Assembly: GCA_030538605.1 (NCBI GenBank)
Contig: JAUNTQ010000015.1
Location: forward strand, 1 to 50,923
Direction of reading: 5' to 3'
From: Pseudomonadota bacterium
GTDB lineage: Bacteria; Pseudomonadota; Gammaproteobacteria; Burkholderiales; Burkholderiaceae_C
DNA: 50,923 bases
Shown: positions 9,389-48,249 of the stretch, piece after piece
How the letters are laid out: each line of letters starts with the position of its first letter
Position numbering within the stretch: position 1 is the stretch's first letter
Made by a program: the position numbers and the translations under genes
Notes under the pieces: model-generated
Seen by the model: only the letters and a program-made list of their open reading frames with translations
What the model was told of the DNA's origin: nothing
Database searches by the model: none

Positions 9389-10036
9389 ATGACCACGCCC
9401 ACCTGGAACCTGATCGCCGTGCTCGCCGCGCTGGGCCTGGCGCTGTCGTTTCGGCCCTGGCGGCTGCTGGGACATACGGGGCTGGTCTCGCCGCTGCTGG
9501 CGGCGCTGGTCATCACGCCCTGGCTGTGGGCGCTGCCCTGGCTGTACCAGATGCCGCTGCGGCTGCAACTGTCGGGCGCATGCCTGATCGCGCTGGTGCT
9601 GGGCTGGCCGCTGGCGGTGCCGGTGCTGTGCGTGGTGGCGCTGGTCACGGGGCTGATTGCGCCGGTGACGTTCGAGCAGCAGGTGGGCATGGCGCTGTGG
9701 CTGGGCGTGGTGCCCGCCACGCTGGCCTTTGCCATGGGCATGGCGCTGCGCCGCTGGGTGTGGAAGAACCTGTTCGTCTACATCCTGGGGCGGGCCTTTC
9801 TGGGCACGGCGGTGTGCATGTTTGCCGCCGGGGCGCTGGCGCAGTGGGCGGGGCACTCGCTCATCACCAACGTGGAGCCGGGCCTGGCGCTGGTGGCGCG
9901 CTGGCTCATCGCCTGGGGCGATGCGTTCTTGACCGGCATGATGGCGGCCATCTTCGTGGCCTTCAGGCCGCAGTGGCTGGCCACCTGGTCTGACAGTCTT
10001 TACGTGCCGCCCCCGCCGCCCACACGGCCGCTGTGA
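9389..10036 (+). CDS. Membrane protein related to CbiM-type transporter permeases (COG3235-like)
   Basis: This 215-residue protein has six to seven hydrophobic helices spanning residues 5-195. It ends AWGDAFLTGMMAAIFVAFRP followed by WLATWSDSLYV and a proline-rich tail. The closing motif resembles a group of uncharacterised proteobacterial membrane proteins annotated as energy-coupling-factor permeases. No ATPase or T-component gene lies nearby, so transport by an ECF mechanism is only a family label. The neighbouring hemerythrin and DUF502 genes are on the same strand, but the 79-bp gap before the start argues for its own promoter. Confidence 0.65.
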   Translation: MTTPTWNLIAVLAALGLALSFRPWRLLGHTGLVSPLLAALVITPWLWALPWLYQMPLRLQLSGACLIALVLGWPLAVPVLCVVALVTGLIAPVTFEQQVGMALWLGVVPATLAFAMGMALRRWVWKNLFVYILGRAFLGTAVCMFAAGALAQWAGHSLITNVEPGLALVARWLIAWGDAFLTGMMAAIFVAFRPQWLATWSDSLYVPPPPPTRPL

Positions 10037-10078
10037 TGGCATACGTTGGCGGGGTTTGTCCATGCACAATGCCACGCC

Positions 10079-10822
10079 ATGAAAAAAACCCTCCCACGCT
10101 TTCAACCCCTGCGCCCGCTGCTGACCGGCATGCTGGCGCTGCTGCCGCTGACGGCCACGCTGTTCCTGCTGGTGTGGGCCACGCGGCTGGCCACCGAATG
10201 GCTGGGACCGACGAGCATGTTTGGCGCGCTGCTCACGCGCATCGGGTTTGGCGTGGGCTCGGGCGCCACCATGTCGGGCTATCTGGTGGGGCTCTTGATC
10301 GTGCTGACGCTGGTCTACAGCTTTGGCCTGCTGGTGGAGGCGGGCTTGCAGCGCGGGGTCGACCGCATGATCCAGGCGCTGATGCGCCGCATCCCCGTCG
10401 TGCGCACGGTATACGACGTGGTGCACCGCCTGGTGGGCATGCTCAGCAAGCCGCGCGAAGAAGGCATGAAGTCGATGAGCCCCGTGTGGCTGCACTTTGG
10501 CGGCCCGGCCGAGCCGGGCAAGCCCGCAACCACCACGGTGGTGCTGGCGCTGCTGACCACGCACGAGCCGGTGCTGCTGGGCGGGCAGCCCCACCTGGGC
10601 GTGCTGGTGCCCACCGCGCCGGTGCCGGTGGGAGGCGGGCTGCTGTTCGTGCCGGCGCACTGGGTAGTGCCCGCCGATGTGGGCATCGAAGGGGTGACGA
10701 GCATTTACGTGTCGATGGGCGTGACGGCCGGGCAGTTTCTGGGCCCCGACGCCGAAGCCCGCCGCGCCGCCGAGCGGGCGGACCGGCAAGCCAGGTCCGC
10801 AGACGCACCGCCCGCCGCTTGA
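10079..10822 (+). CDS. DUF502 membrane protein
   Basis: This 247-residue protein starts MKKTLPRFQPLRPLLTGMLALLPL. It has two strong membrane helices (about residues 10-32 and 58-85). The soluble part carries the DUF502 signatures RRIPVVRTVYDVVHRLV and VPTAPVPVGGGLLFVP. Several signatures are glycine/proline-rich loops conserved across proteobacteria and plants. The start at 10079 is preferred over an in-frame ATG at 10046 because the helix begins directly after it. The function of DUF502 is unknown. It follows the preceding membrane gene by 42 bp and may be co-transcribed. Confidence 0.88.
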   Translation: MKKTLPRFQPLRPLLTGMLALLPLTATLFLLVWATRLATEWLGPTSMFGALLTRIGFGVGSGATMSGYLVGLLIVLTLVYSFGLLVEAGLQRGVDRMIQALMRRIPVVRTVYDVVHRLVGMLSKPREEGMKSMSPVWLHFGGPAEPGKPATTTVVLALLTTHEPVLLGGQPHLGVLVPTAPVPVGGGLLFVPAHWVVPADVGIEGVTSIYVSMGVTAGQFLGPDAEARRAAERADRQARSADAPPAA

Positions 10823-10948
10823 GGCACATCAAGCGCGCGGCGCAAACCAAAGTACGCCGCGCCGTGTTTGCGTCACGTCAATGCCGACGCACGCCTGCTG
10901 CGCCACAGTGCGCCTTGTGTCCCACGACCTGGCAAGGAGCCACGCGCC

Positions 10949-11098
10949 ATGAAACTCTGGCAAGACCTGTTCAGCACCGACTACGGACTGATGAGCATCT
11001 CGGGCATCGTCTTCATGCTCTTGATGGCCGTCTGGTTCGTGCGCTTTTTTCTGCGCAAGATGAACGAAACGCCGCGCGACACACGGCCCATGAAGTAA
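10949..11098 (+). CDS. DUF3149 small membrane protein
   Basis: This 49-residue protein, MKLWQDLFSTDYGLMSISGI followed by a single transmembrane helix and FFLRKMNETP, matches the DUF3149 pattern. A good ribosome-binding site (AAGGAGC) lies 9 bp before the ATG. The open frame extends upstream, but that part is not protein-like. The function is unknown. A large palindrome begins 7 bp after its stop. Confidence 0.8.
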   Translation: MKLWQDLFSTDYGLMSISGIVFMLLMAVWFVRFFLRKMNETPRDTRPMK

Positions 11099-11105
11099 AG
11101 CATTG

Positions 11106-11197
11106 AAAACAGGAGCTGCTTGCGTACGGTTTAAAACGATTTCAGATTCTTTTTCACCTGAAATCGTTTTAAACCGTACGCAAGAAGCTCCTGTTTT
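11106..11197. repeat. Class A palindrome, copy 1
   Basis: The arms at 11106-11145 and 11158-11197 are 40 bp each and pair with a single mismatch, around a 12-base T-rich loop. The shared core is AGCTGCTTGCGTACG on the left and CGTACGCAAGAAGCT on the right. The element lies between the convergent DUF3149 gene and the acyl-CoA ligase gene. Related copies are at 25253, 35829, 40573 and 46381, with a half copy at 16779. It could terminate transcription in both directions. The variable outer and inner stem segments (CAGG/CCTG, GGTTTAAAACG/CGTTTTAAACC) remain complementary. Confidence 0.9.
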
Positions 11198-11216
11198 GTT
11201 TATGCAAGCAATCCAG

Positions 11217-11330
11217 CAGCCGAACGCAGAGGGCGCAGAGGATTCGCAGAGGACGCAGAGGGAACAGCTCTTTTTTTTGGGTTTTCCTCTGCGCTCTCTG
11301 CGTGGTCTCTGCGTCCTCTGCGTTCGGCTG
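11217..11330. repeat. CGCAGAGG-repeat palindrome
   Basis: The left part contains four spaced CGCAGAGG-type units and the right part carries the inverse units CCTCTGCG/CTCTGCG. The outer 16 bp (CAGCCGAACGCAGAGG) are perfectly inverted at the other end. The centre has CTC followed by eight T residues (11271-11278). It begins 19 bp after the class A palindrome. A related decayed half lies at 25199-25231, also next to a class A palindrome. Periodic CGCAGAGG elements occur between genes in several bacterial groups; their role is unknown. Confidence 0.8.
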
Positions 11331-11355
11331 TTGGGGGTTTGCGGCTCAAGCCACC

Positions 11356-13050
11356 TCAGCCCTGCCCTGCCTCCGCCTCTTGCAGCTTGCGCCACATGAC
11401 CTTGCCGCTGCCGCTTTTGGGCAGCGCGTCGGCAAACTGCACCACGCGCGGCGTTTTGTAGACGGCCATGTTTTCGCGGCACCAGTCGATGATGTCCTGC
11501 TCGCTCACCTGGCCTTGCTGGCCGGGGCGAAGCACCACCACGGCCTTGACGGATTCGCCCCGGTAATCGTCGCGGGTGGCGATGATGCAGGCCTCCTGAA
11601 TGGCCGGGTGGCGGTACATGAGCGACTCCACCTCGGCGGGCCAGACCTTGAAGCCTGAGGCATTGATCATGCGTTTCAGGCGGTCGGTGAGGAAGAAGTA
11701 GCCCTCCTCGTCCATGTGGCCCAGATCGCCCGAGCGGAAAAAGCGCTTGCCGTCCAGCTCGAAAAACGCCGCCGCGGTCGCCTCGGGGCGCTTCCAGTAG
11801 CCGCTGAAGACCTCGGGCCCGCTGATGACGATCTCGCCCTGCTCGCCCGGCGGCAGCTCTTGCAGCGTTTCGGGGTCGACCACACGTGCGTCGGTGCTCA
11901 TGAAGGGAATGCCCAGGCACTGCTGCTTGGGGCGGTCGATGGGGTTCTGGTGCGAGGGCGCGGCGGTTTCGGTCAGGCCGTAGCCCTCGCAATAGGCCAG
12001 GCCATACACGTCCAGCAGGCGCTGGGCCACGGCCTGCGGCATGGCCGCGCCGCCGCCGTTGATGGTTTTCAGGCTGGTGAGGTCGAAGCTGGCGAAGTTG
12101 GGACTGGCCAGCAGGTCGATGACCATGGTGGGGATGTTGGTGAAGGCGGTGACCTTCCAGCGCGAGATCAGCCGCCCGGCCAGCTCGCGGTCCCAGCGCG
12201 GCATGAGCACGCCGGTGGCGCCCAGGTACACCTGCGTGTGCATCACCGCCACCATGCCCGTGATGTGGAACATGGGCACCACCACCAGCGCCACGGTCTG
12301 GCTGGTGCCCGCGCCCCACATGCTGCAAGCCACGGCGTTGTGCATGATGGATGCATGCGTGTGCATGCAGCCCTTGGGCAGGCCGGTGGTGCCGCTGGTG
12401 TAGGGCAGCACGCTCAGGTCTTGCGGGCTGGCGGTGTGCGCAGCCAGCGGGTGGGTGCTGGCCAGCGCGTCCACCCAGTCGTGTACCTGCCCGCCTGCGA
12501 GCGTGGGCAGCGCGTGGCGCGTGAGCAGCCAGTCGCGCCAGGCCTCGGGCGGGGCGTCGTCGCCGGTGATGGCGGCGTCGAACGCGTCGGTGTATTGCGT
12601 GACGATGAGGTGCGCCAGGCGCTGGCCTTCGGGCAGCGCGTTGCTGGCGGCGGCCAGCTCAGGCGCCAGCTCGCCGGTGGTGAGGGCGACCTTGGCGTCG
12701 GCGTCGGTGATGTAGTGCTTCAGCTCTTCGGCCCGGTTCATCGGGTTGACGGGCACCACCACCGCGTCGGCGCGCAGGATGGCGAAGTGCGCCAGCACCA
12801 GCTGCGGGCAGTTCTGCATGTCGAGCAGCACGCGGTCGCCTTTTTGCACGCCCAGCGATTGCAGGTGCGCGGCCAGCCGCTCGGCCCCGCTTTTCAGCTC
12901 GGCATAGGTCAGCACGCGGCCAAAGAACACCAGCGCGGGCTTGCCTGGGTAGCGCGCGGCGCTGACTTCCAGGTTGAACCACAGCGAAGTGGCGGGCGGC
13001 GTGATGGCCTGCGGCAGGCGGGCAGGCCAGAACTTCTCGTGCGGGCGCAT
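11356..13050 (-). CDS. AMP-forming acyl-CoA ligase (long-chain fatty acid-CoA ligase type)
   Basis: This 564-residue adenylate-forming enzyme has the P-loop-like YTSGTTGLPKG (residues 217-227), the GYGLTETA motif, the SGDLGHMDEEGYFFLTDRLKR hinge region, and the C-terminal LPKSGSGKVMWRKL with the catalytic Lys. It activates a carboxylic acid to its CoA thioester with ATP. Long- or medium-chain fatty acids are likely, but chain preference cannot be read. The ATG at 13050 has an AGGAG 10 bp upstream; an earlier in-frame start at 13098 gives a non-conserved extension. It is convergent to the DUF3149 gene, with two palindromic repeats in between. Confidence 0.9.
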   Translation of the reverse strand: MRPHEKFWPARLPQAITPPATSLWFNLEVSAARYPGKPALVFFGRVLTYAELKSGAERLAAHLQSLGVQKGDRVLLDMQNCPQLVLAHFAILRADAVVVPVNPMNRAEELKHYITDADAKVALTTGELAPELAAASNALPEGQRLAHLIVTQYTDAFDAAITGDDAPPEAWRDWLLTRHALPTLAGGQVHDWVDALASTHPLAAHTASPQDLSVLPYTSGTTGLPKGCMHTHASIMHNAVACSMWGAGTSQTVALVVVPMFHITGMVAVMHTQVYLGATGVLMPRWDRELAGRLISRWKVTAFTNIPTMVIDLLASPNFASFDLTSLKTINGGGAAMPQAVAQRLLDVYGLAYCEGYGLTETAAPSHQNPIDRPKQQCLGIPFMSTDARVVDPETLQELPPGEQGEIVISGPEVFSGYWKRPEATAAAFFELDGKRFFRSGDLGHMDEEGYFFLTDRLKRMINASGFKVWPAEVESLMYRHPAIQEACIIATRDDYRGESVKAVVVLRPGQQGQVSEQDIIDWCRENMAVYKTPRVVQFADALPKSGSGKVMWRKLQEAEAGQG

Positions 13051-13207
13051 GGGGCGTTGTCTCCTGTGGGTGGGGGGTATGTATGGTCGCGCCGCCATGC
13101 TGCGTGCCCGCCAGCCGCCCGTCTGTCACCCACGGGACGGCGGCTGCGCGCCTGGGGCCGGTACGGGAACAAGGGCAGGTTGGCAGCAGCCCGTCTCCAT
13201 CGAAATG

Positions 13208-13978
13208 TCAGCCGCCCTGCGCTGCGCCGGGCTGCGGGCCGGCACCCTGGCTCGGCATGGCGCAGGCCAGCAAGGCGCCGTTGAAGGCCACGGCACAGAC
13301 CATCCGGACGCTGCCTGCGGTCACCCAGGTGACGCCTGCGGCCTTGCCCTGTGCGGCCTGGAGCGCCGCAGCGCAGCGCGCATCCGCATCCGCACCCAGT
13401 GCCGCACAGCTGGGCATGATCTCGAAGAAGGTACCGCCATCCAGGCCCTGTTCACCCTTGCCCGGTGTGGGAACCGAAGCCAGCGCCACGACCGGCTCTT
13501 TCCCGAACCGCGCACAAAGGCGGTGCCGGTTGCGTTTCAGAAGTGCCGCCAATTGCCCGGCGTTGTTGAAACTGAAGCCCTCGGCGGTGAAGTCCGGGCA
13601 GTCCTTCCCCTGCTCTTTGCCAGCGGTGCAGCCCTCCAGGCCGAAGGGCTCGGCAGGCAGCAGCACGCTGCCCTGCCGCTCGAGCACACCGGCGTTGCAC
13701 ATGACCATTTCAAGGCCATCGACGTCGGTCACCGGGCAATGTGCATAGGCCAGCCTTCGGCCCGATCCGATCAACGGGAAACCCGTCACTTCCAACACCG
13801 CGCCGGGCTCCCGCCTGAACATGCCGGCGATGACGTGGTTGACGCCGGCGATGTGCCGCTCGCAGCTCTGCGCTGCCCACACCCGGGGCGAGCAGACCAT
13901 CAGCGCCAGCACACTGGCGCCAAGCGCAGCAGCCAGCCGAACGGAGCCAGGGCGCAAGGCGGCGGGGGTGTCATGCAC
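13208..13978 (-). CDS. Exported cysteine-containing protein of unknown function
   Basis: This 256-residue protein has a signal peptide (about residues 1-35, ...VCSPRVWA|AQSCERH). The mature part has about ten Cys residues, an even number that would suit disulfides in the periplasm, and segments such as DVDGLEMVMCNAGVLERQGS. No family was recognised. The gene starts 24 bp after the stop of the upstream ABC binding-protein gene on the same strand and is probably co-transcribed with it. A start further inside is possible, but the first ATG gives the cleanest signal peptide. Confidence 0.6.
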   Translation of the reverse strand: MHDTPAALRPGSVRLAAALGASVLALMVCSPRVWAAQSCERHIAGVNHVIAGMFRREPGAVLEVTGFPLIGSGRRLAYAHCPVTDVDGLEMVMCNAGVLERQGSVLLPAEPFGLEGCTAGKEQGKDCPDFTAEGFSFNNAGQLAALLKRNRHRLCARFGKEPVVALASVPTPGKGEQGLDGGTFFEIMPSCAALGADADARCAAALQAAQGKAAGVTWVTAGSVRMVCAVAFNGALLACAMPSQGAGPQPGAAQGG

Positions 13979-25252: not shown

Positions 25253-25344
25253 AAAAAGTGAGCTGCTTGCGTACGTTATAAAACATTTTTAAATACAAAA
25301 ACACCTGAAAATAAATTAAAACGTACGCAAGAAGCTCACTTTTT
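25253..25344. repeat. Class A palindrome, copy 2
   Basis: The left arm AAAAAGTGAGCTGCTTGCG is followed by TACGTTATAAAAC; the right arm ends CGTACGCAAGAAGCTC followed by ACTTTTT. The outer GTG/CAC pair replaces the AGG/CCT found in copy 1, so the stem is conserved while its sequence is not. The inner arms are AT-rich and pair imperfectly. The element lies 22 bp after the stop of the GspE-like gene, upstream of the DUF2868 gene. The flanking A5/T5 runs would suit termination in both directions. Confidence 0.88.
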
Positions 25345-25366: not shown

Positions 25367-27163
25367 TCAAGTCAACGGCGGCGTGGCCGCTATCACTTCT
25401 TCCAGTGTGGTCAGCCCTTCGGCGGCGCGCATGGCACCGGCCAGGCGCAGGGGGCGCATGCCGTCGGCCACGGCTTGTTTGCGCAAGGGGGCCATGTCGG
25501 TGCCGGCGTGCACTTTTTCCTTGAAGGCTTCGCTCACCGTGAGCAGCTCGTAGATGCCCATGCGGCCACGGTAGCCGGTCATGCGGCAATCGACACAGCC
25601 GACGGGACGGTAGGGGCGGTAGTGGCCGCTGTTGATCTTCCAGGGTTTGACGGCTTCGGCAAGCTGTTCGGTGGCGCCGGTTTCGCCGGGCTGTTTGCAG
25701 GCGGGGCACAGGGTGCGCACCAGGCGCTGGGCGAGCACGCCGAGGATGGTGGCGTTGAGCAAGTAGGCGGGCACGCCCAGCTCCATCAGCCGCGTGAGGG
25801 CGCTGGGCGCGTCGTTGGTGTGCAGGGTGCTGAAGACGAGGTGGCCGGTGAGCGCGGCCTGCACGGCCATCTCAGCCGTTTGCAAATCGCGTATCTCGCC
25901 GATCATGATGATGTCGGGGTCTTGCCGCATCAGCGCGCGCACGCCTTCGGCAAAGCTGAAGTCGAGCTGGGGCTGCACCTGGGTCTGGTTCAGCGCGGGG
26001 TCGATGCGTTCGATGGGGTCTTCGATGGTGCTAACGTTGACTTCTTCGGTGGCCACGCGGCGCAGGGTGGAATAAAGCGTGGTGGTCTTGCCGCTGCCGG
26101 TGGGGCCGGTGACGAGGATGATGCCGTGCGGGCGCTGCACCATTTGCTCCCAGCGGGCGGCGTCGTGCGGGGTGAAGCCGAGTGCGCTCAGGTCTTTCAC
26201 CGCCGTGTCGGGGTCGAAGATGCGCATGACCAGCTTTTCGCCGAAGGCGGTGGGCAGGGTTGACAGGCGCATCTCGATCTCGTCGCCGCCGGGGCTGCGG
26301 GTCTTGATGCGGCCATCCTGCGGGCGGCGCTTTTCCACCACGTCCATGCGGCCCAGCAGCTTGACGCGGGCGGTGATGGCGTTCATCACGCCGGGCGGCA
26401 CCTGGTAGACGGGGTGCAGCACGCCGTCGATGCGAAAGCGGATGACGCCCTGCTCGCGCCGCGGCTCCAGGTGGATGTCGCTGGCGCGCTGGTCGAAGGC
26501 GTATTGCCACAGCCAGTCAACCACCTGGATCACGCCCTGGTCGTTGGCGTCGAGCTGCTTGCCGGTCTTGCCCAGCTCCACCAGTTGCTCGAAGCTGGTG
26601 GCTGCCGCCGTGCCGCCGCTCTTGACGGCGGCGCGCACCGATTTGGCCAGCGCGAAAAACTCGGCCGTGTAGCGCTTGATCTCCACCGGGTTGGCCACCA
26701 CGCGGCGCACGCTGCGGCGCGACTGGCGCTCCACCTCGCTCACCCAGTCGGTGATGAAAGGCTCGCTGGTGGCCACCACCACCTCGGCAGCCGTCACCTG
26801 CACGGGCAGGATCTTGTGGCGCTCGGCATAGGCAGCGCTCATCGCGTCGGCCACCTTGCCCGCGTCCACCTTCAGCGGGTCGATGCGCAGGTAGTCCAGC
26901 TCGGCGCGGCGCGCCAGGTATTGGGTGAGCTGCTCCACGTCCATCGGCTGGCCGTCCACCGCGCGCTGCACGCCCACGGCGGCCAGGCGCACCAGCGCGG
27001 TTTGCGCGCTTTCGGCAGAAGCGCAGCGGGCAATGGTGCGCGCCGCTTCTTCGGCAGTGATGACGCCGTCTTCCTGCATCCACTCCACCAGGTAGTGCCA
27101 CTGCACGGGGCCGTGGTACTGGAAGGCGGGTGCCAGCGGCGCGGGGCGGGTCTTGGGTTTCAT
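25367..27163 (-). CDS. GspE/PulE/PilB-type secretion ATPase, orphan
   Basis: From the ATG at 27163 the protein has 598 residues. The N-terminal GspE-N domains (about 1-180) precede the ATPase core with Walker [11 protein letters not shown] near residue 354, an Asp box ([18 protein letters not shown]), Walker [10 protein letters not shown] near 418, and a His box. A zinc site follows: CPAC near 486 and CVDC near 524. These features are complete, so it should be an active hexameric ATPase of type II secretion or type IV pilus assembly. No pilin, GspF or secretin gene is nearby. Its partner gene is 29 bp upstream on the same strand. Confidence 0.9.
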
Positions 27164-35446: not shown

Positions 35447-35743
35447 TCACAGCCCCGACTTCTGGCGATAGCTTTCCACCGCCTGTTGCAGGCGCGCCCC
35501 GGGCTCCGCAGGGGTCAGCAGCGCGGTCACGAAGGCCACCTGCTCCTCGCGGCTCAGGCGAATCACCTCGTGGTGGTGCACGATTTTCATGGCCGCCTCT
35601 TGCGTGCTGTCGATGACAAGCTCGCTCAGGGTGCGTCCGCTCAAAGACGCCGCACGCTGGAAAAAATCCTTTTGTTCGCTGGACACGCGCGCTTCAAGGC
35701 GCGCGTTGCGCGGCTTGTCCTGGGTTTCGGGTGTGTTCAGCAT
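35447..35743 (-). CDS. DUF1778 antitoxin (TacA-like)
   Basis: This 98-residue protein from the ATG at 35743 contains RNARLEARVSSEQKDFFQRAASLSGRTLSELVIDS, a ribbon-helix-helix DUF1778 domain. A toxin-binding tail (HHHEVIRLSREEQVAFVTALLTP) follows. It stops at 35447, directly abutting the TTG start of the GNAT toxin. An earlier ATG at 35770 adds nine residues and is less likely. The RHH domain should repress the operon jointly with the toxin. Confidence 0.87.
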   Translation of the reverse strand: MLNTPETQDKPRNARLEARVSSEQKDFFQRAASLSGRTLSELVIDSTQEAAMKIVHHHEVIRLSREEQVAFVTALLTPAEPGARLQQAVESYRQKSGL

Positions 35744-35828
35744 GAAGGGCCTCGCGAAGATGGGTTTCACCTCACAATGTACGCCAATTGTCCGTACACA
35801 ACCAGCATCTCACCATTTGTTATAAAAA

Positions 35829-35910
35829 AGGAGCTGCTTGCGCTAGTTATTATTCATTTTCAGATAGTTTCATATCTGAAAAAGTTTTAAAACGTACGCA
35901 ACCAGCTCCT
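35829..35910. repeat. Class A palindrome, copy 3 (divergent)
   Basis: The left arm begins AGGAGCTGCTTGCGCTAGTT and the right arm ends AACGTACGCAACCAGCTCCT. The inner hairpin CAGATA/TATCTG is preserved. This copy has drifted most (CTAG for GTAC on the left). It lies between two divergent genes, 85 bp upstream of the antitoxin start and 107 bp before the next ATG, so here it cannot be a terminator of either gene. Confidence 0.85.
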
Positions 35911-36017
35911 CTATTTAAATCATTCCTTGCCATCTTCCTCCCCCATCGCCACGCACGCTACCATGCGCCCCACACGCGCCCGCCCCGGTGGCGCGCTCTG
36001 CAAAGGAAAGCCCCGAG

Positions 36018-39841: not shown

Positions 39842-40465
39842 ATGGCCCAGCTCTTCACCGTCCACCCCGACAACCCGCAGCCCCGCCTGCTCAGGCAAGC
39901 CGCCGACCTGCTGCGCAAAGGCCAGGTGCTGGCCGTGCCCACCGACTCCAGCTATGCGCTGGCCTGCCAGCTCGACGACAAGGCCGCCGCCGACAGCCTG
40001 CGCCACATCCGGCAGGTGGACGACAAGCACCACCTCACCCTGCTGTGCCGCGACCTGAGCGAGCTGGCCAGCTATGCGCGCGTGGACAACACGCAGTTCC
40101 GCCTGCTCAAGCTCGGCACGCCCGGCCCCTTCACCTTCATCCTCGAAGCCAGCAAGGAAGTGCCCCGCCGCCTGAGCCACCCCCAGCGCAAAACCATCGG
40201 TCTGCGCGTGCCCGCACACAAAGCCCTGCTGGCCTTGCTGGAGCTGCACGGCGCGCCGCTGCTGGCCACCACCCTCATCCTGCCCGGTGAGCAAGAGCCG
40301 CTGGCCGAGCCCGACGCCATCCGAGAGCAACTCGAACGCCAGGTGGCCGCCGTCATCGACGCCGGCGCCTGCCCGCAGCAGCCCACCACCGTGATCGACC
40401 TCACCGGCGACACCCCCGCCGTGCTGCGCGAAGGCGGCGGCGATCCCCGGCAGCTCGGGCTTTGA
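39842..40465 (+). CDS. YciO/Sua5/YrdC-type protein
   Basis: This 207-residue protein starts MAQLFTVHPDNPQPRLLRQA. It shows the YrdC-fold signatures VLAVPTDSSYALACQL, KHHLTLLCRDLSELASYA and PGPFTFILEASKEVPRRL. It belongs to the YciO branch by length and context (next to a YciV-like PHP gene). True threonylcarbamoyl-AMP synthases often have a KRP near the start of the domain; here DDKHHLTLL is found. tRNA t6A synthesis is therefore possible but not certain. A class A palindrome lies 107 bp downstream. Confidence 0.85.
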   Translation: MAQLFTVHPDNPQPRLLRQAADLLRKGQVLAVPTDSSYALACQLDDKAAADSLRHIRQVDDKHHLTLLCRDLSELASYARVDNTQFRLLKLGTPGPFTFILEASKEVPRRLSHPQRKTIGLRVPAHKALLALLELHGAPLLATTLILPGEQEPLAEPDAIREQLERQVAAVIDAGACPQQPTTVIDLTGDTPAVLREGGGDPRQLGL

Positions 40466-40572: not shown

Positions 40573-40664
40573 AAAATAGTAGCTGCTTGCGTACGTTTTT
40601 AGGTGAATTCAGATGAAAAACCATCTGAAAATGCCTAAAAACGTACGCAAGAAGCTACTATTTT
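40573..40664. repeat. Class A palindrome, copy 4
   Basis: The arms AAAATAGTAGCTGCTTGCG followed by TACGTTTTTAGG and CCTAAAAACGTACGC followed by AAGAAGCTACTATTTT pair over 31 bp with one mismatch, the same G/A position as in copies 1 and 2. The inner TCAGATG/CATCTGA forms a second short hairpin. The element lies between the convergent yciO-type and glycine-zipper genes. Outer AGT/ACT bases differ from the other copies but remain paired. Confidence 0.9.
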
Positions 40665-40697: not shown

Positions 40698-41258
40698 TCA
40701 CGCCCCGCCCTTGCCCCCTTCATCCACGCGCTGCCAAGCCGCCAGGCCACGGGCGCGGGCCTGCTCCCAACTCAGGCGCGACTTACCCTTGAGCAATTCC
40801 CAGTCGCGCTGCAAATCGGCCTCGGCCACGTCCCAGCTCTTGCCTGCGTAGCGCTCGCGCCCCTGGTAGCCCAGGCGATAGGCCGGCGCGTAGTCGTCCT
40901 CATAGCTGTACGCAGTGGCATGGTCAGGCTCACCCACGTGGTTCTCGCGCCAGTAGTCGTAGTTCTCGTCACCCGCGCGCACAGCCGCGTAACCGCCCAG
41001 CGCACCCGCCACGGCGCCGATGGCGCTGCCCGCCAGAATGCCCACCGGGCCGCCCACCGCCGCGCCGGCTGCCGCACCCACGGCCGCACCGGCCATCACG
41101 CCGCCGCCCATGACGACGGAGTTGGCTTCGGACGCGCGCTCTTCGGGCGTCATCGGCTCTTGCGCCTTCAGGCGCGGGTCTTGCGACGGAATGCCCGCAG
41201 GTGCAGCCGTCGGCGGCTCCTCGGGCGGGGCGGTATTGGTTTTCGGGTCTTGGCTCAT
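40698..41258 (-). CDS. Glycine-zipper domain protein
   Basis: This 186-residue protein has a disordered, proline-rich N-terminus (residues 1-45). A glycine zipper follows at about 48-95 (GAAVGAAAGAAVGGPVGILA, GSAIGAVAGALGGYAAVRAG), then a charged aromatic C-terminal part (ENYDYWRENHV, YEDDYAPAYRLGYQGRERYA, DLQRDWELLKGKSRLSWEQA). No signal peptide is visible. Similar stress-related proteins with CsbD-like or phage-lysin-like tails occur in Burkholderiales. Function is unknown. The two minus-strand genes here are not tightly spaced (53 bp). Confidence 0.7.
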   Translation of the reverse strand: MSQDPKTNTAPPEEPPTAAPAGIPSQDPRLKAQEPMTPEERASEANSVVMGGGVMAGAAVGAAAGAAVGGPVGILAGSAIGAVAGALGGYAAVRAGDENYDYWRENHVGEPDHATAYSYEDDYAPAYRLGYQGRERYAGKSWDVAEADLQRDWELLKGKSRLSWEQARARGLAAWQRVDEGGKGGA

Positions 41259-45040: not shown

Positions 45041-45102
45041 CAAAAATAATAGCTGCCAGCGCTGTTTTTTACGCTAGCAGCAGGCCAATTTACTTCAAAA
45101 AA
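45041..45102. repeat. Class B repeat between phaA and phaB
   Basis: This AT-rich stretch contains the hairpin GCTGCCAGCG (45052-45061) / CGCTAGCAGC (45072-45081) with one mismatch and a T-rich loop. It is flanked by CAAAAATAATA and TTCAAAAAA. It matches the general form of a dispersed Comamonadaceae element and the block inside the gene at 20004. It occupies most of the 114-bp phaA-phaB spacer. Confidence 0.7.
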
Positions 45103-45138: not shown

Positions 45139-46317
45139 TCAACGCTCGACGGCCAGCGCCACGCCCATGCCGCCGCCGATGCACAGGCCAGCCAGGCCTT
45201 TCCTGGCGCCGCTGCGCTGCATTTCGTGCAGCAGCGTGACCAGCACGCGGCAGCCGCTGGCACCGATGGGGTGGCCGATGGCGATGGCACCGCCGTTGAC
45301 GTTGACCCTGGCGGGGTCGATGCCCAGCAGCTTGTTGACGGCGCAGGCCTGCGCAGCGAAGGCTTCGTTCAGCTCGAACAGATCGACGTCGCCCACGCCC
45401 CAGCCCGCGCGCGTGAGGGCTTTTTGCGTCGCGCCCACCGGGCCCAGGCCCATGGTGGCCGGATCAAGCCCCACGGTGGCATAGCTGGCGATGCGCGCGA
45501 GCGGCTGAAGCCCCAGCGCAGCGGCTTTCTTGGCCGACATGACCACCACGGCGGCAGCGCCGTCGTTCAGGCCGCTGGCGTTGCCGGCGGTGACCGTGCC
45601 TGCCTTGTCGAACGCGGGGCGCAGCCCGGCCAGGGCTTCGGCGCTGGTCTTGGTGTTGATGTATTCGTCGGCTTCGAACACCACCGGGTCGCCCTTGCGC
45701 TGGGGGATGCTGACGGCGGTGATTTCGTCCTTGAACTTGCCTGCGCTCTGCGCGGCGGCGGCCTTTTTCTGGCTGGACAGGGCCAGCGCGTCCTGCATGT
45801 CGCGCGTGATGCCTTCCTGCCTGGCGACGTTTTCGGCGGTGATGCCCATGTGGTACTGGTTATAGACGTCCCACAGGCCGTCGACGATCATGGTGTCGGC
45901 CATTTTCCAGTCGCCCATGCGCTGGCCGTCGCGGCTGCCCAGCAGCACGTGGGGGCTGGCGGACATGTTCTCTTGCCCACCGGCCACGACGATTTCGCTG
46001 TCGCCCGTGGCCACGGCCTGGGCAGCGAGCATGACGGCTTTCAGGCCCGAGCCGCACACGGCGTTGATGGTCAGGCCCGGGGTTTCGCGCGAGACGCCGG
46101 CTTTCAGCAGCGCCTGGCGCGCGGGGTTTTGCCCGCTGCCGGCGGTGAGCACCTGGCCCATGATGACCTCGCCCACCTGGTCAAGGCCGACCTTGGCGCG
46201 CTCGAGTGCGGCGCGGATGGCGATGCTGCCCAGCTCGGTGGCGGGCACCTTGGCGAGCGAGCCGCCGAACTTGCCCACGGCGGTGCGGGCAGCAGAAACG
46301 ATGACGATGTCTTCCAT
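45139..46317 (-). CDS. phaA: Acetyl-CoA C-acetyltransferase (beta-ketothiolase)
   Basis: This 392-residue thiolase starts MEDIVIVSAARTAVGKFGGS. It has the catalytic Cys88 (INAVCGSGLKAV), His349 (AIGHPIGASGCR) and Cys379 (GLCIGGGMG). It condenses two acetyl-CoA into acetoacetyl-CoA. The length equals that of biosynthetic PhaA. An upstream in-frame start at 46347 adds a few unsupported residues; the ATG at 46317 has AAGGAG upstream. The gap to phaC (174 bp) holds a class A palindrome. Confidence 0.97.
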   Translation of the reverse strand: MEDIVIVSAARTAVGKFGGSLAKVPATELGSIAIRAALERAKVGLDQVGEVIMGQVLTAGSGQNPARQALLKAGVSRETPGLTINAVCGSGLKAVMLAAQAVATGDSEIVVAGGQENMSASPHVLLGSRDGQRMGDWKMADTMIVDGLWDVYNQYHMGITAENVARQEGITRDMQDALALSSQKKAAAAQSAGKFKDEITAVSIPQRKGDPVVFEADEYINTKTSAEALAGLRPAFDKAGTVTAGNASGLNDGAAAVVVMSAKKAAALGLQPLARIASYATVGLDPATMGLGPVGATQKALTRAGWGVGDVDLFELNEAFAAQACAVNKLLGIDPARVNVNGGAIAIGHPIGASGCRVLVTLLHEMQRSGARKGLAGLCIGGGMGVALAVER

Positions 46318-46380
46318 GGGTTTCAGTCTCCTTGAAGTGCAAAACAAACCGTGAGGGGAATGCCCTCAAACAAAAAAACA

Positions 46381-46458
46381 TAGCTGCTTGCGCACGTTAT
46401 ACCTTATTTTCAGATTGTTTTATATCTAAAAACCCTATATAACGTACGCAAGCAGCTA
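46381..46458. repeat. Class A palindrome, copy 5, between phaC and phaA
   Basis: The left arm TAGCTGCTTGCGCACGTTAT is followed by ACC; the right arm TATATAACGTACGCAAGCAG ends with CTA. Here the GCTGC/GCAGC position pairs fully. The inner part keeps CAGAT/ATCT. The element begins on the minus strand 33 bp after the phaC stop and ends 64 bp before the phaA start. In the operon transcript it would form a long hairpin separating the synthase from the monomer genes. Confidence 0.88.
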
Positions 46459-46491
46459 CCAATTTAAAACCATTTTCTCAGCCACTGACGC

Positions 46492-48249
46492 TCAAGCCTT
46501 GGCCTTGACATAACGGCCGGGCGCAGGCTCGATGGCCTTGTAGGCCGTGCCGCGGCCGTAGGCTTTGGGCGCGGCGATTTGCTTGCCTGCGTGGCCTTTG
46601 AGCCAGGCGGCCCAGTCTTCCCACCAGCTGCCGGGGATTTCCTCGGCACCGGCGATCCACTCGTTCACGCTGGGCGGGAACTTGCCGTCGCCGCGCACCC
46701 AGTGACTGCGCTTGTTGGCCGCAGGCGGGTTGATGACGCCGGCGATGTGGCCCGACGCACCCATCATGAAGCGCTTCTTGCCGGGCAGAACCTGCGTGGT
46801 GGCGTAGGCACCGCCGATGGGCACGATGTGGTCTTCGCGCGAGCCGTAGATGTAAAACGGCATATCGAGCAGGCCCAGGTCGATCTTCTCGCCGCACACG
46901 GTGACGGCACCGGGCTTGACGAGATTGTTTTCGAGGTAGGTGTTGCGCAGGTACCAGGCGTAGAAGGGGCCGGGCAGGTTGGTGGAGTCGCTGTTCCAGT
47001 AGAGCAAGTCGAACGGCGGCGGGGTTTCGCCCTTGAGGTAGTTGCCGACGACGTAGTTCCACACCAGGTCGTTGGGGCGCAGGAAGCTGAAGGTGCTGGC
47101 GAGATCCTGCCCCTTGAGCATGCCGCCTGATCCCATCTGCATTTCGCGGTAGTTGACCATGTTCTCGTCGATGAACACGTCGAGGATGCCGGTGTCGCTG
47201 AAGTCGACCAGCGTGGTCAGCAGCGTGGCCGAGGCGACGGGCTTTTCGCCGCGCGCGGCCAGCACCGCCAGCGCGGTGGTGAGGATGGTGCCGCCCACGC
47301 AAAAGCCCAGGGCGTTGATCTGTTTGGCCCCGGTGATGTCCTGCACGCGGTGGATGGCCTCGATGGCGGCGTGCTCGATGTAGTCGTCCCAGGTGGCTTT
47401 TTCAAGCGATGCGTCGGGGTTGCGCCAGCTCACGACGAAGGTGCGGTGGCCTTTGGAGACGGCGTAGCGGATGACGGAGTTGGTGGGCTGCAGGTCGAGG
47501 ATGTAGAACTTGTTGATGCACGGGGGCACCAGCAGGAAGGGCTTTTCGTGCACCTTCTCGGTCAGCGGCTTGTATTCGATGAGCTGGAACAGCGCGTTCT
47601 CGAACACGATGGCGCCCTCGGTGGTGGCGACGTTCTTGCCCACCTCGAACAGGCTTTCGTCCGTCATCGACACATGGCCCTGGCGCATGTCGTGCAGCAT
47701 GTTGGCCACGCCCTTGGCCAGGCTTTCGCCCTGGGTGTCGATGGCTTTTTGCTGCGCATCGGCGTTGAAGGCCAGGAAGTTGCTGGGCGCGGCGGCGGCC
47801 ATCCACTGCTCGACGGCGAAGCGGATGCGGTTTTTGGTCTTGGCGTCGCCCTCGGCGGCTTCGGCCATGGCCATGAGGGTGCGGGAGTTGAGCAGATACA
47901 CCGCTGCGGCAAACGAGGCGAGCGGGTTGCCCGACCAGGCGTCGCCCTTGAAGCGGCGGTCTTTCAGCGCGGGGGCGGCTTGCAGGCTCTGGTTCCACAG
48001 CTCGGCGGCTTCGCGCACATAGGTCTGTTGCAGCTCGAGCAGCTTTTCGGGCGCGAAATTGAGCTGCGGCAGCTCCACGCCGGCGGGCAGCGCGCCGGAG
48101 GCATTGAAGGCGCCGATGTCCATGTTCTGGAACTGCTCGAACGCTTTCAGCCAGCCTTGGGCAAACCCGTTTTCCAGCGGCCCGGGCATGGCTTGAGGCA
48201 TTTTGGCCATCATGTCTTGCCAAGCGGCAAAAGTCTGCTGCGGGGTCAT
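46492..48249 (-). CDS. phaC: Class I poly(3-hydroxyalkanoate) synthase
   Basis: This 585-residue protein has the lipase-like box GFCVGG with nucleophile Cys317, Asp473 (REDHIVPIGG) and His501 (GHIAGVINPP), the full catalytic triad. The N-terminal domain (residues 1-180) and the length fit class I enzymes such as that of Cupriavidus necator. It polymerises (R)-3-hydroxybutyryl-CoA on granule surfaces. It is the first gene of the phaCAB operon. An AAGGAGACAAC ribosome-binding site lies before the ATG. No phasin, phaR or depolymerase gene is visible in the window. Confidence 0.97.
   Translation of the reverse strand: MTPQQTFAAWQDMMAKMPQAMPGPLENGFAQGWLKAFEQFQNMDIGAFNASGALPAGVELPQLNFAPEKLLELQQTYVREAAELWNQSLQAAPALKDRRFKGDAWSGNPLASFAAAVYLLNSRTLMAMAEAAEGDAKTKNRIRFAVEQWMAAAAPSNFLAFNADAQQKAIDTQGESLAKGVANMLHDMRQGHVSMTDESLFEVGKNVATTEGAIVFENALFQLIEYKPLTEKVHEKPFLLVPPCINKFYILDLQPTNSVIRYAVSKGHRTFVVSWRNPDASLEKATWDDYIEHAAIEAIHRVQDITGAKQINALGFCVGGTILTTALAVLAARGEKPVASATLLTTLVDFSDTGILDVFIDENMVNYREMQMGSGGMLKGQDLASTFSFLRPNDLVWNYVVGNYLKGETPPPFDLLYWNSDSTNLPGPFYAWYLRNTYLENNLVKPGAVTVCGEKIDLGLLDMPFYIYGSREDHIVPIGGAYATTQVLPGKKRFMMGASGHIAGVINPPAANKRSHWVRGDGKFPPSVNEWIAGAEEIPGSWWEDWAAWLKGHAGKQIAAPKAYGRGTAYKAIEPAPGRYVKAKA

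What the first reader, a model, noticed from the sequence alone, without database searches (positions are those of the whole stretch)
11106..11197. Family of class A palindromes with a fixed core and co-varying stems
Five full elements (11106, 25253, 35829, 40573, 46381) share a core near AGCTGCTTGCGTACG ... CGTACGCAAGAAGCT. The outer and inner stem bases differ between copies yet stay complementary: AGG/CCT, GTG/CAC, AGT/ACT outside; GGTTTAAAACG/CGTTTTAAACC versus GTTTTTAGG/CCTAAAAAC inside. Simple copying of one sequence would not give this. It suggests selection on a stem in DNA or RNA, or a generation process that rebuilds the second arm from the first. Five copies in 51 kb also implies a large genome-wide family. 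Similar repeats are known by eye in Comamonadaceae; their function is not described as far as I know.
Basis: partly seen in the sequence, partly recalled or inferred. Interest (0 to 1): 0.75.

Follow-up and report, generated by a model that had tools for sequence, protein, structure and literature searches.

The report
Repeated palindromes at bacterial gene ends
The five palindromes are copies of a family of about 320 nearly fixed-length DNA hairpin elements that sit just after the ends of genes and probably act as two-way stop signals for transcription; matching changes in the two arms are real here but small, and in related genomes it is the sequence and spacing of the arms that is kept.

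Summary
Each window element is 92 bp with an AGCT-to-AGCT core of exactly 76 bp. The genome (genus Ottowia) holds 321 places of this geometry against 0 for a reversed control. Relatives occur in Comamonas, Acidovorax and other genera.

Of 126 copies with a called gene on each side, 58 lie between convergent, 63 between tandem and 5 between divergent genes; 46 of the 63 start within 60 bases of the stop codon. Folding, A/T tracts and position fit a bidirectional intrinsic terminator.

The co-variation claim is partly right. In an unbiased set, arm pairing exceeds shuffles (1094 against 1004 of 1500 cells), but most departures are uncompensated. In five other genomes the mid-stem shows no significant excess.

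In O. beijingensis two blocks per arm, AGCTGCTTGCGC and GATTTCAG, are conserved at rigid spacing (45 of 48 arms) around a spacer near random identity; in the window's own genome this contrast is absent. That suggests recognition of a bipartite half-site besides the hairpin. Short-form motifs were listed in print in 2017; my searches found no description of the long form. Function is untested.

The parts
11106..11197 (.). Element E1, 92 bp; core 11114-11189; between convergent gene calls (stop of a + gene at 11098, stop of the - AMP-binding gene at 11356)
   Evidence: top hit of model R1 in own genome (R1 was built partly from it)
11114..11128 (.). E1 left block 1, AGCTGCTTGCGTACG
   Evidence: exact arm; conserved columns
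11138..11145 (.). E1 left block 2, GATTTCAG (core positions 25-32)
   Evidence: conserved in other genomes
11146..11157 (.). E1 apical loop (T-rich on this strand, A-rich on the other)
11158..11165 (.). E1 right block 2, CTGAAATC
11175..11189 (.). E1 right block 1, CGTACGCAAGAAGCT
11106..11109 (.). E1 left A-tract (T-tract of the other strand)
11194..11197 (.). E1 right T-tract
25253..25344 (.). Element E2, core 25261-25336; 31 bases past the stop of the - strand type II/IV secretion ATPase gene (called 25367-27163)
35824..35915 (.). Element E3, core 35832-35907; gene calls on both sides read divergent but the left call is weak
40573..40664 (.). Element E4, core 40581-40656; between convergent gene calls (39842-40465 + and 40698-41258 -)
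46374..46465 (.). Element E5, core 46382-46457; between phaC (46492-48249 -) and the thiolase gene phaA (called 45139-46317 -), 35 bases past the phaC stop; a full-length element also lies there in O. beijingensis

Best explanation
Each copy is a gene-end element: a dyad-symmetric 76-bp core flanked by an A-tract on one side and a T-tract on the other, so that either strand, when transcribed, gives a strong hairpin followed by U. It most likely works as a bidirectional intrinsic transcription terminator, closing two convergent genes at once or separating tandem genes. Shown here: position just past stop codons, hairpin and tracts on both strands, rarity between divergent genes, and a full-length element at the same gene end in another species at three or four loci (few of those that could be compared). 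Inferred: that it terminates transcription. A second, less certain step is that the two conserved blocks of each 38-bp arm (AGCTGCTTGCGC, then GATTTCAG from arm position 25) are read as sequence by some factor, because in O. beijingensis they and their spacing are kept while the spacer between them is not. The excess of complementary arms in the window's genome is a smaller effect, from weak selection on the stem or from arm-to-arm copying.
For: Position: 58 convergent, 63 tandem, 5 divergent, 1 overlapping a gene call and 8 at edges, of 135. The 20 loci (6 of them O. beijingensis): 9 tandem, 6 convergent, 0 divergent, 4 edge, 1 overlap, and all 15 placed ones lie 5-69 bases past a stop; 18 further O. 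beijingensis copies: 9 tandem, 6 convergent, 2 divergent, 1 overlap. Hairpin: RNA fold z -6.9 to -14.3 for 5 of 5. Excess pairing outside the core covers only the 3-4 bases between AGCT and the A/T tracts; the tracts keep composition, not pairing, as expected for the base of a terminator stem beside its U-tract. Orthologous gene ends in O. beijingensis with a full-length element: the E5 locus, L027 and L032, and probably L047. Convergent gene ends with an element carry another terminator-like hairpin less often, 4 of 79 against 9 of 57 (p 0.043). Sequence recognition: block 2, not used to find copies, has 0.79 identity between O. beijingensis copies, the spacer 0.34, random 0.28-0.29; ATTTCAG starts at arm position 26 in 45 of 48 O. 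beijingensis arms and 21 of 28 arms of other species, and TTTC at 27 in 53 of 62 arms of G175.
Against: No directional signature: in tandem pairs the T count after the stem is equal on sense and antisense strands (7.29 against 7.00 of 14, p 0.58, n 63), and loop direction is random to the gene (30 of 62). On the sense strand G-U mismatches are no commoner than A-C (81 against 76 in 46 tandem copies), so no sign of selection on one RNA strand. The terminator comparison used unequal stretches (105 against 206 bases), some rows counted as without an element contain one cut by the limit (for example L004, L008), and the tandem comparison is not significant (4 of 52 against 12 of 79, p 0.28). In the window's own genome the spacer is not free (identity 0.69, random 0.43) and block 2 is no better (0.70). 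Only 2 of 22 comparable own gene ends show a clear full-length element in O. beijingensis and 1 of 6 with both flanks syntenic. Rigid length is more than a terminator needs. Gene calls are mine, from a codon model. No transcript data.
Confidence: 0.6

Rival explanations
1. A non-autonomous mobile palindrome (MITE-like or REP-like): two 38-bp terminal inverted repeats back to back, with boxes for a transposase, which spreads and survives only where it does not break genes or promoters, that is, behind stop codons.
For: Own-lineage spread: the TACG type has 223 copies here and 0 in 10 other genomes, while 26 copies of the common CYTG type remain. Patchy high copy number across genera. Few gene ends shared with O. 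beijingensis. Bipartite arms of fixed spacing resemble transposase-bound inverted repeats (recalled, no call).
Against: No clear target-site duplication (best of 882 tests z 3.8). Nearest neighbours among 135 copies share at most 92%. No solo arm among 113 elements with an exact arm. In O. beijingensis the blocks are conserved although the spacer is near random identity, which decay in place would not give. The one own Y1 transposase locus read (L146) carries a different repeat. No match in viral contigs (one pattern), plasmids or phages (one query, L116). An autonomous parent was not searched for exhaustively.
Confidence: 0.25
2. A double-stranded DNA binding site, for instance for a chromosome-organising or topology protein, placed between convergent and tandem genes, where transcription-driven supercoils meet; the hairpin is incidental.
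For: Four conserved blocks lie about 22, 20 and 22 bp apart, near two helical turns each (arithmetic). Core length is 76 in 106 of 113 and 17 of 20. Mid-stem pairing is not significantly better than shuffled in five other genomes.
Against: A and T tracts fit a terminator directly. Excess pairing in own genome and a weak apical excess in two others (G050 z 2.2, G175 z 2.1) suggest a strand that folds. No binding protein identified.
Confidence: 0.2
3. The arms resemble each other because replication or repair at the hairpin copies one arm onto the other (template switching), not because the stem is selected.
For: Both arms have nearly the same column make-up (smallest p among columns 1-43 is 0.0063 in 131 oriented copies). 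Words of 3 bases are linked inside an arm (columns 7-8 z 22.7, 85-86 z 25.2), while their cross-arm partners are not among the 25 strongest links. The strong asymmetry is the loop (A4 on one strand), which lies either way round.
Against: Column 33/60 is variable in both arms yet uncorrelated (37 observed, 35.9 expected). Five other genomes show little or no arm agreement beyond consensus.
Confidence: 0.25

Closest known systems
Spaced motif pairs ATAGCT(N)22CAAAAG of Polaromonas naphthalenivorans and GCTTAT(N)5AAGCG of Acidovorax ebreus (PMC5217627; passages and section 13 read)
   Same: Comamonadaceae, intergenic, often between convergent genes (34 of 125 copies; 44 convergent, 4 divergent, 59 co-oriented of 107 intergenic), close to gene ends. 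Many matches to the first pattern here read ATAGCTGCTTGCGCTTG..GGGCGCAAAAG (by eye), and the complement of the second occurs at an orthologous gene end (L191 segment), so both look like short relatives of this element; no Polaromonas or A. ebreus genome was examined by name.
   Different: They describe short hairpins without the apical module and block 2; the paper assigned no function beyond arguing against transcription initiation.
Beta-proteobacterial repeat element BRE (PMC3110155, passages read)
   Same: About 90 bp, dispersed and mostly intergenic, present in Comamonadaceae.
   Different: Bordetella copies average 69% GC and can occur in tandem arrays; ours are 32% GC on average and single. 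The BRE sequence is in a figure that is not held, so identity could not be tested.
REP/BIME extragenic palindromes with RAYT transposases
   Same: Hundreds of extragenic palindromes behind genes, convergent or tandem, rarely divergent (for REP: recalled).
   Different: Longer, fixed length, no GTAG-type head (recalled feature); close pairs were not counted (L079 holds two copies 1.2 kb apart); no RAYT flanked by copies in the one own locus read.
Uptake-sequence terminators of Neisseria and Pasteurellaceae (PMC1852404, passages read)
   Same: Repeated sequence forming terminator hairpins.
   Different: Uptake sequences also occur singly in large numbers (recalled in part); here 113 of 113 elements with an exact arm have a partner arm.

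Membership tests
Intrinsic (Rho-independent) terminator | Stable hairpin directly followed by a T-tract | tested here: met
   hairpin z -6.9 to -14.3 in 5 of 5; columns 89-92 are T in 108-119 of 135
Intrinsic (Rho-independent) terminator | Lies just downstream of stop codons, not upstream of genes | tested here: met
   121 of 126 convergent or tandem, 5 divergent
Intrinsic (Rho-independent) terminator | T-tract kept better on the transcribed strand of tandem pairs (expected of a one-way terminator) | tested here: not met
   7.29 against 7.00, p 0.58; equality is also what a two-way element would give
Intrinsic (Rho-independent) terminator | Ends transcripts | not testable with these tools
   no RNA data
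REP/BIME | Associated RAYT (Y1) transposase flanked by copies | tested here: inconclusive
   two Y1 matches in own genome; one locus read, with a different repeat and one element at a neighbouring gene end; the second was not read
MITE | Target-site duplication | tested here: not met
   135 copies, 882 tests, best z 3.8
MITE | Recent near-identical copies or autonomous parent | tested here: inconclusive
   nearest neighbour at most 92% over the 135 copies held of about 321; no parent seen, not searched exhaustively
DNA uptake sequence | Many single copies, also inside genes | tested here: not met
   113 of 113 elements with an exact arm are paired; 1 of 135 overlaps a gene call
BRE (PMC3110155) | BRE sequence | not testable with these tools
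   sequence only in a figure; GC content and tandem arrays differ
Rfam families | Match at gathering score | tested here: not met
   0 matches in the window

The most novel reading that the evidence does not exclude
The element is a gene-end boundary built on a sequence-specific complex: each 38-bp arm is a bipartite recognition site (AGCTGCTTGCGC, then GATTTCAG with rigid spacing), four boxes about two helical turns apart and symmetric about the centre, bound by an unidentified protein that works together with the hairpin to stop polymerases arriving from both sides. Lineages carry different types; this genome has spread a TACG type to 223 places, absent from the ten other genomes tested.
Probability: 0.2. 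Interest if true: 0.75.

Novelty: new variant of a known kind. Interest (0 to 1): 0.5.

Why it matters
Intrinsic terminators are usually taken to need a hairpin and a U-tract, not a set sequence. Here hundreds of gene ends in one genome share a fixed-length palindrome, and in relatives its two conserved boxes and their spacing are kept while the spacer is free. If a factor reads those boxes, that would be a dedicated gene-end system in a large bacterial family, and the rigid spacing makes it easy to test. Even as an ordinary terminator family it explains a frequent repeat and warns that a shared palindromic consensus can look like co-variation.

Tried and rejected
Rfam: no match. Uptake-sequence idea rejected by absence of solo arms. 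Target-site duplications not found. RAYT link: the own-genome locus L146 has repeats reading TCTGACCCCAATTT and one element at a neighbouring gene end; the second Y1 place (C157) was not read. RNA-strand selection by G-U against A-C: no signal. T-tract asymmetry: none. Loop direction against gene direction: none. Subfamily descent as the cause of pairing: distant columns unlinked, so not supported.

Faulty searches: the patterns allowed at most 45 bases between the 15-base arms, whereas the usual spacing is 46, so the 2 hits and the zero say nothing about 76-bp copies. That the TACG type is missing elsewhere rests alone (10 other genomes). A plasmid search with window 9500-13500 gave 5 records with partial matches, none covering most of the query, and was not used.

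Presence at orthologous gene ends by detector: of 22 own gene ends with an element, 4 called long, 4 with another arm, 14 none in O. beijingensis; of 32 without, 3, 3 and 26; random 240-mers 38 long and 78 arm of 3000. The difference is small and was not tested. By eye two of the four long calls (L054, L092) are short forms, and several 'none' rows hold short relatives (e.g. L034, L073, L191); these readings are not counted. With both flanks required, 6 of 127 loci could be compared, 1 of them with a full-length element.

Short-form regex in own held DNA found 5 candidates, 4 inside genes, so it was no use for counting short forms.

Rows dropped or limits: model R1 scored at most 150 candidates, giving 102 places. 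7 of 82 one-arm elements of other length were left out of the gapless counts; 4 of 135 had no clear loop direction; 8 of 135 lay at edges. 60 of the 135 copies used were chosen by the pairing-aware model, and the 135 (identity), 72 and 78 mix both sources likewise, so only the 82 (75 gapless) one-arm copies were used for the main pairing test. The tests in other genomes used only copies printed in the listings: G167 20 of 72, G134 10 of 13, G050 10 of 29 (pattern), G175 31 of 39 (pattern), chosen by block-1 similarity.

Literature searches gave no description of the long form; most subscription papers are not in that library. Papers seen: passages of PMC3110155, PMC1852404 and PMC2864571, passages and section 13 of PMC5217627; others as search listings.

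Full report
OBSERVATION. The five palindromes are present at 11106-11197, 25253-25344, 35824-35915, 40573-40664 and 46374-46465. All are 92 bp from A-tract to T-tract and all have a core of exactly 76 bp from AGCT to AGCT, so they can be laid over each other without gaps. RNA folding gives z-scores of -14.3, -10.3, -6.9, -14.0 and -8.6 against dinucleotide shuffles. The core 10-mer is above all 100 shuffles of the window. Rfam has no match at gathering score.

GENOME AND RELATIVES. The window is one contig of a 3.77-Mb draft genome of 234 contigs. The same-genus genome G003 has a contig of 4,008,472 bases, the length of that of Ottowia beijingensis GCS-AN-3, so the genus is Ottowia (Comamonadaceae). 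A pattern of the two outer arms at fixed geometry with up to 3 mismatches finds 321 places here and 0 for the reversed control; among the 200 genomes of the family searched the next counts are 72, 57, 40, 29, 27, 20 and 13, the rest have 0-9 and mostly 0-3, the level of the control. A pattern with the core ATAGCTGCTTGCGC and a free spacer of 45-58 bases found 20 places in the named collection (Ottowia, Comamonas, Acidovorax and records named only to higher rank); 17 of 20 have core length 76, two 75, one 74. Among 11 genomes the TACG type is found only here (223, and 0 in 10 others) and the CYTG type in 9 of 11, including 26 copies here. So this lineage has multiplied its own type. (an earlier search for the TACG type, allowed too short a spacer and is void.)

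CO-VARIATION. Model R1 favours pairing, so I built a set that does not: 82 elements that have one exact arm, with no condition on the rest; 75 are gapless at 92 bp. Inner positions 24-43 pair in 1094 of 1500 cells; shuffled partners give 1004 with sd 13, and 0 of 5000 shuffles reach the observed number. Pairs 24/69, 26/67, 28/65, 30/63, 34/59, 40/53 and 8/85 exceed shuffles at p below 0.01; others such as 33/60 do not. Outside the core, excess pairing is seen in the 3 columns next to AGCT in this set and in 4 in the mixed set of 135; the A and T tracts have none beyond composition. Most departures are uncompensated: in the inner stem 107 cells changed on both arms and still paired against 406 without a Watson-Crick pair; in the outer word, 62 against 154. 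Within other genomes the mid-stem shows no significant excess: z 0.2 in O. beijingensis (24 elements), 1.0 in G167 (20), 0.0 in G134 (10), 0.5 in G050 (10), 0.8 in G175 (31); the apical stem gives 0.9, 0.8, 1.2, 2.2 and 2.1 (the ranges differ slightly between the two calls). These sets are small. Fourteen elements from other species taken together do show agreement (117 against 88 of 210), which may reflect each species having its own palindromic consensus.

WHAT IS CONSERVED. In O. beijingensis, block 2 (positions 24-31), which was not used to find copies, has identity 0.79 between copies, while the spacer (16-23) has 0.34 against 0.28 expected at random; in 14 elements of other species the values are 0.59 and 0.32. 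ATTTCAG starts at position 26 in 45 of 48 O. beijingensis arms and 21 of 28 arms of other species (4 have no match), and most 1-base length differences fall in the loop; in G175 TTTC is at one position in 53 of 62 arms. In the window's own genome the contrast is absent: spacer 0.69 against 0.43 random, block 2 0.70 against 0.33, as expected of a younger or more uniform family. The common arm elsewhere is AGCTGCTTGCGCyTG, about 9 freer bases, GATTTCAGAT, then an A- or T-rich loop. In own genome far columns are unlinked (mean z 0.10 over 747 pairs), while neighbours in one arm are linked, above all the word next to AGCT. The 75 copies average 32% GC in a window of 68% GC, and nearest neighbours among 135 copies share at most 92%. 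The loop is A-rich on one strand in 131 of 135 copies, lies at random to gene direction, and is the only strong asymmetry.

POSITION. Genes were called with a codon model trained on this genome. Of 135 elements, 63 are tandem, 58 convergent, 5 divergent, 1 overlaps a gene call and 8 are at edges. In tandem pairs the core starts within 60 bases of the upstream stop in 46 of 63. For comparison, gaps of 100 bases or more in the window are 14 tandem, 6 divergent, 4 convergent. Of the 20 loci (6 of them O. beijingensis), 9 are tandem, 6 convergent, 0 divergent, 4 at edges and 1 overlapping; of 18 other O. beijingensis copies, 9, 6, 2 divergent and 1 overlapping. At the phaC-phaA gap, E5 has a full-length counterpart in O. 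beijingensis; L027 and L032 and probably L047 likewise. These are few: 2 clear cases of 22 comparable gene ends and 1 of 6. At other orthologous gene ends the relative has a shorter hairpin beginning with similar letters (by eye), or nothing recognisable.

MECHANISM. The best reading is a two-way intrinsic terminator with conserved boxes. Position, hairpin, tracts and the place of the outer covarying bases support it. Against a plain terminator stand the equal T-tracts on both strands in tandem pairs, the absence of G-U bias and the rigid length. The last, with the conserved boxes of the relatives, suggests a factor that reads sequence; that step is inference. Mobile spread is a partial rival, since this lineage has clearly multiplied one type, but no target duplication, near-identical copy, solo arm or parent element was seen in what was held.

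PRIOR WORK. A 2017 motif survey lists ATAGCT(N)22CAAAAG in Polaromonas naphthalenivorans (125 copies) and GCTTAT(N)5AAGCG in Acidovorax ebreus (114 copies) as potential novel motifs (PMC5217627, section 13 read). Many matches of the first pattern read by eye as short relatives, and the second occurs in an orthologous gene end. BRE (PMC3110155, passages) is of similar length but GC-rich and often tandem; its sequence could not be compared. Nine searches of the library found no description of the 92-bp form.

VERDICT. The thing is a gene-end palindrome family, probably a bidirectional terminator, new in its fixed bipartite form.

Noticed in passing
window 11213-11334: A second inverted repeat made of GCAGAGG-type units (52-nt arms, 83% complementary) directly beside E1; similar CCTCTGCG strings appear at another gene end (L015).
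   Followed up: no
window 45052-45081: A short hairpin (GCTGCTAGCG..CGCTGGCAGC with T-rich tail on the - strand) downstream of phaA, by eye a short relative of the long elements; similar ones lie at the same place in some other Ottowia species.
   Followed up: partly
L007, L020, L026, and a variant in L015 (gene-end segments printed): A different repeated palindrome, GTAGGCTGGGTAGAGC..GCTCTACCCAGCCTAC, which looks like a GTAG-type REP (recalled motif).
   Followed up: no
L146 1830-2330: Near a Y1 transposase gene, repeats of TCTGACCCCAATTT, plus one 76-bp-type element at the neighbouring gene end.
   Followed up: partly
window 35824-35915: E3 is the only window element called divergent; the left gene call (35447-35770) is weak, so the context is uncertain.
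   Followed up: no
L193 and L194: G018 and G003 are identical over the 216 bases printed at phaC-phaA, although they are held as different species; one assembly may contain DNA of the other.
   Followed up: no
own-genome tandem elements 7 bases after the stop: In 7 tandem cases the gene's TAA stop overlaps the start of the element's A-tract, as if the element supplied the stop codon.
   Followed up: no
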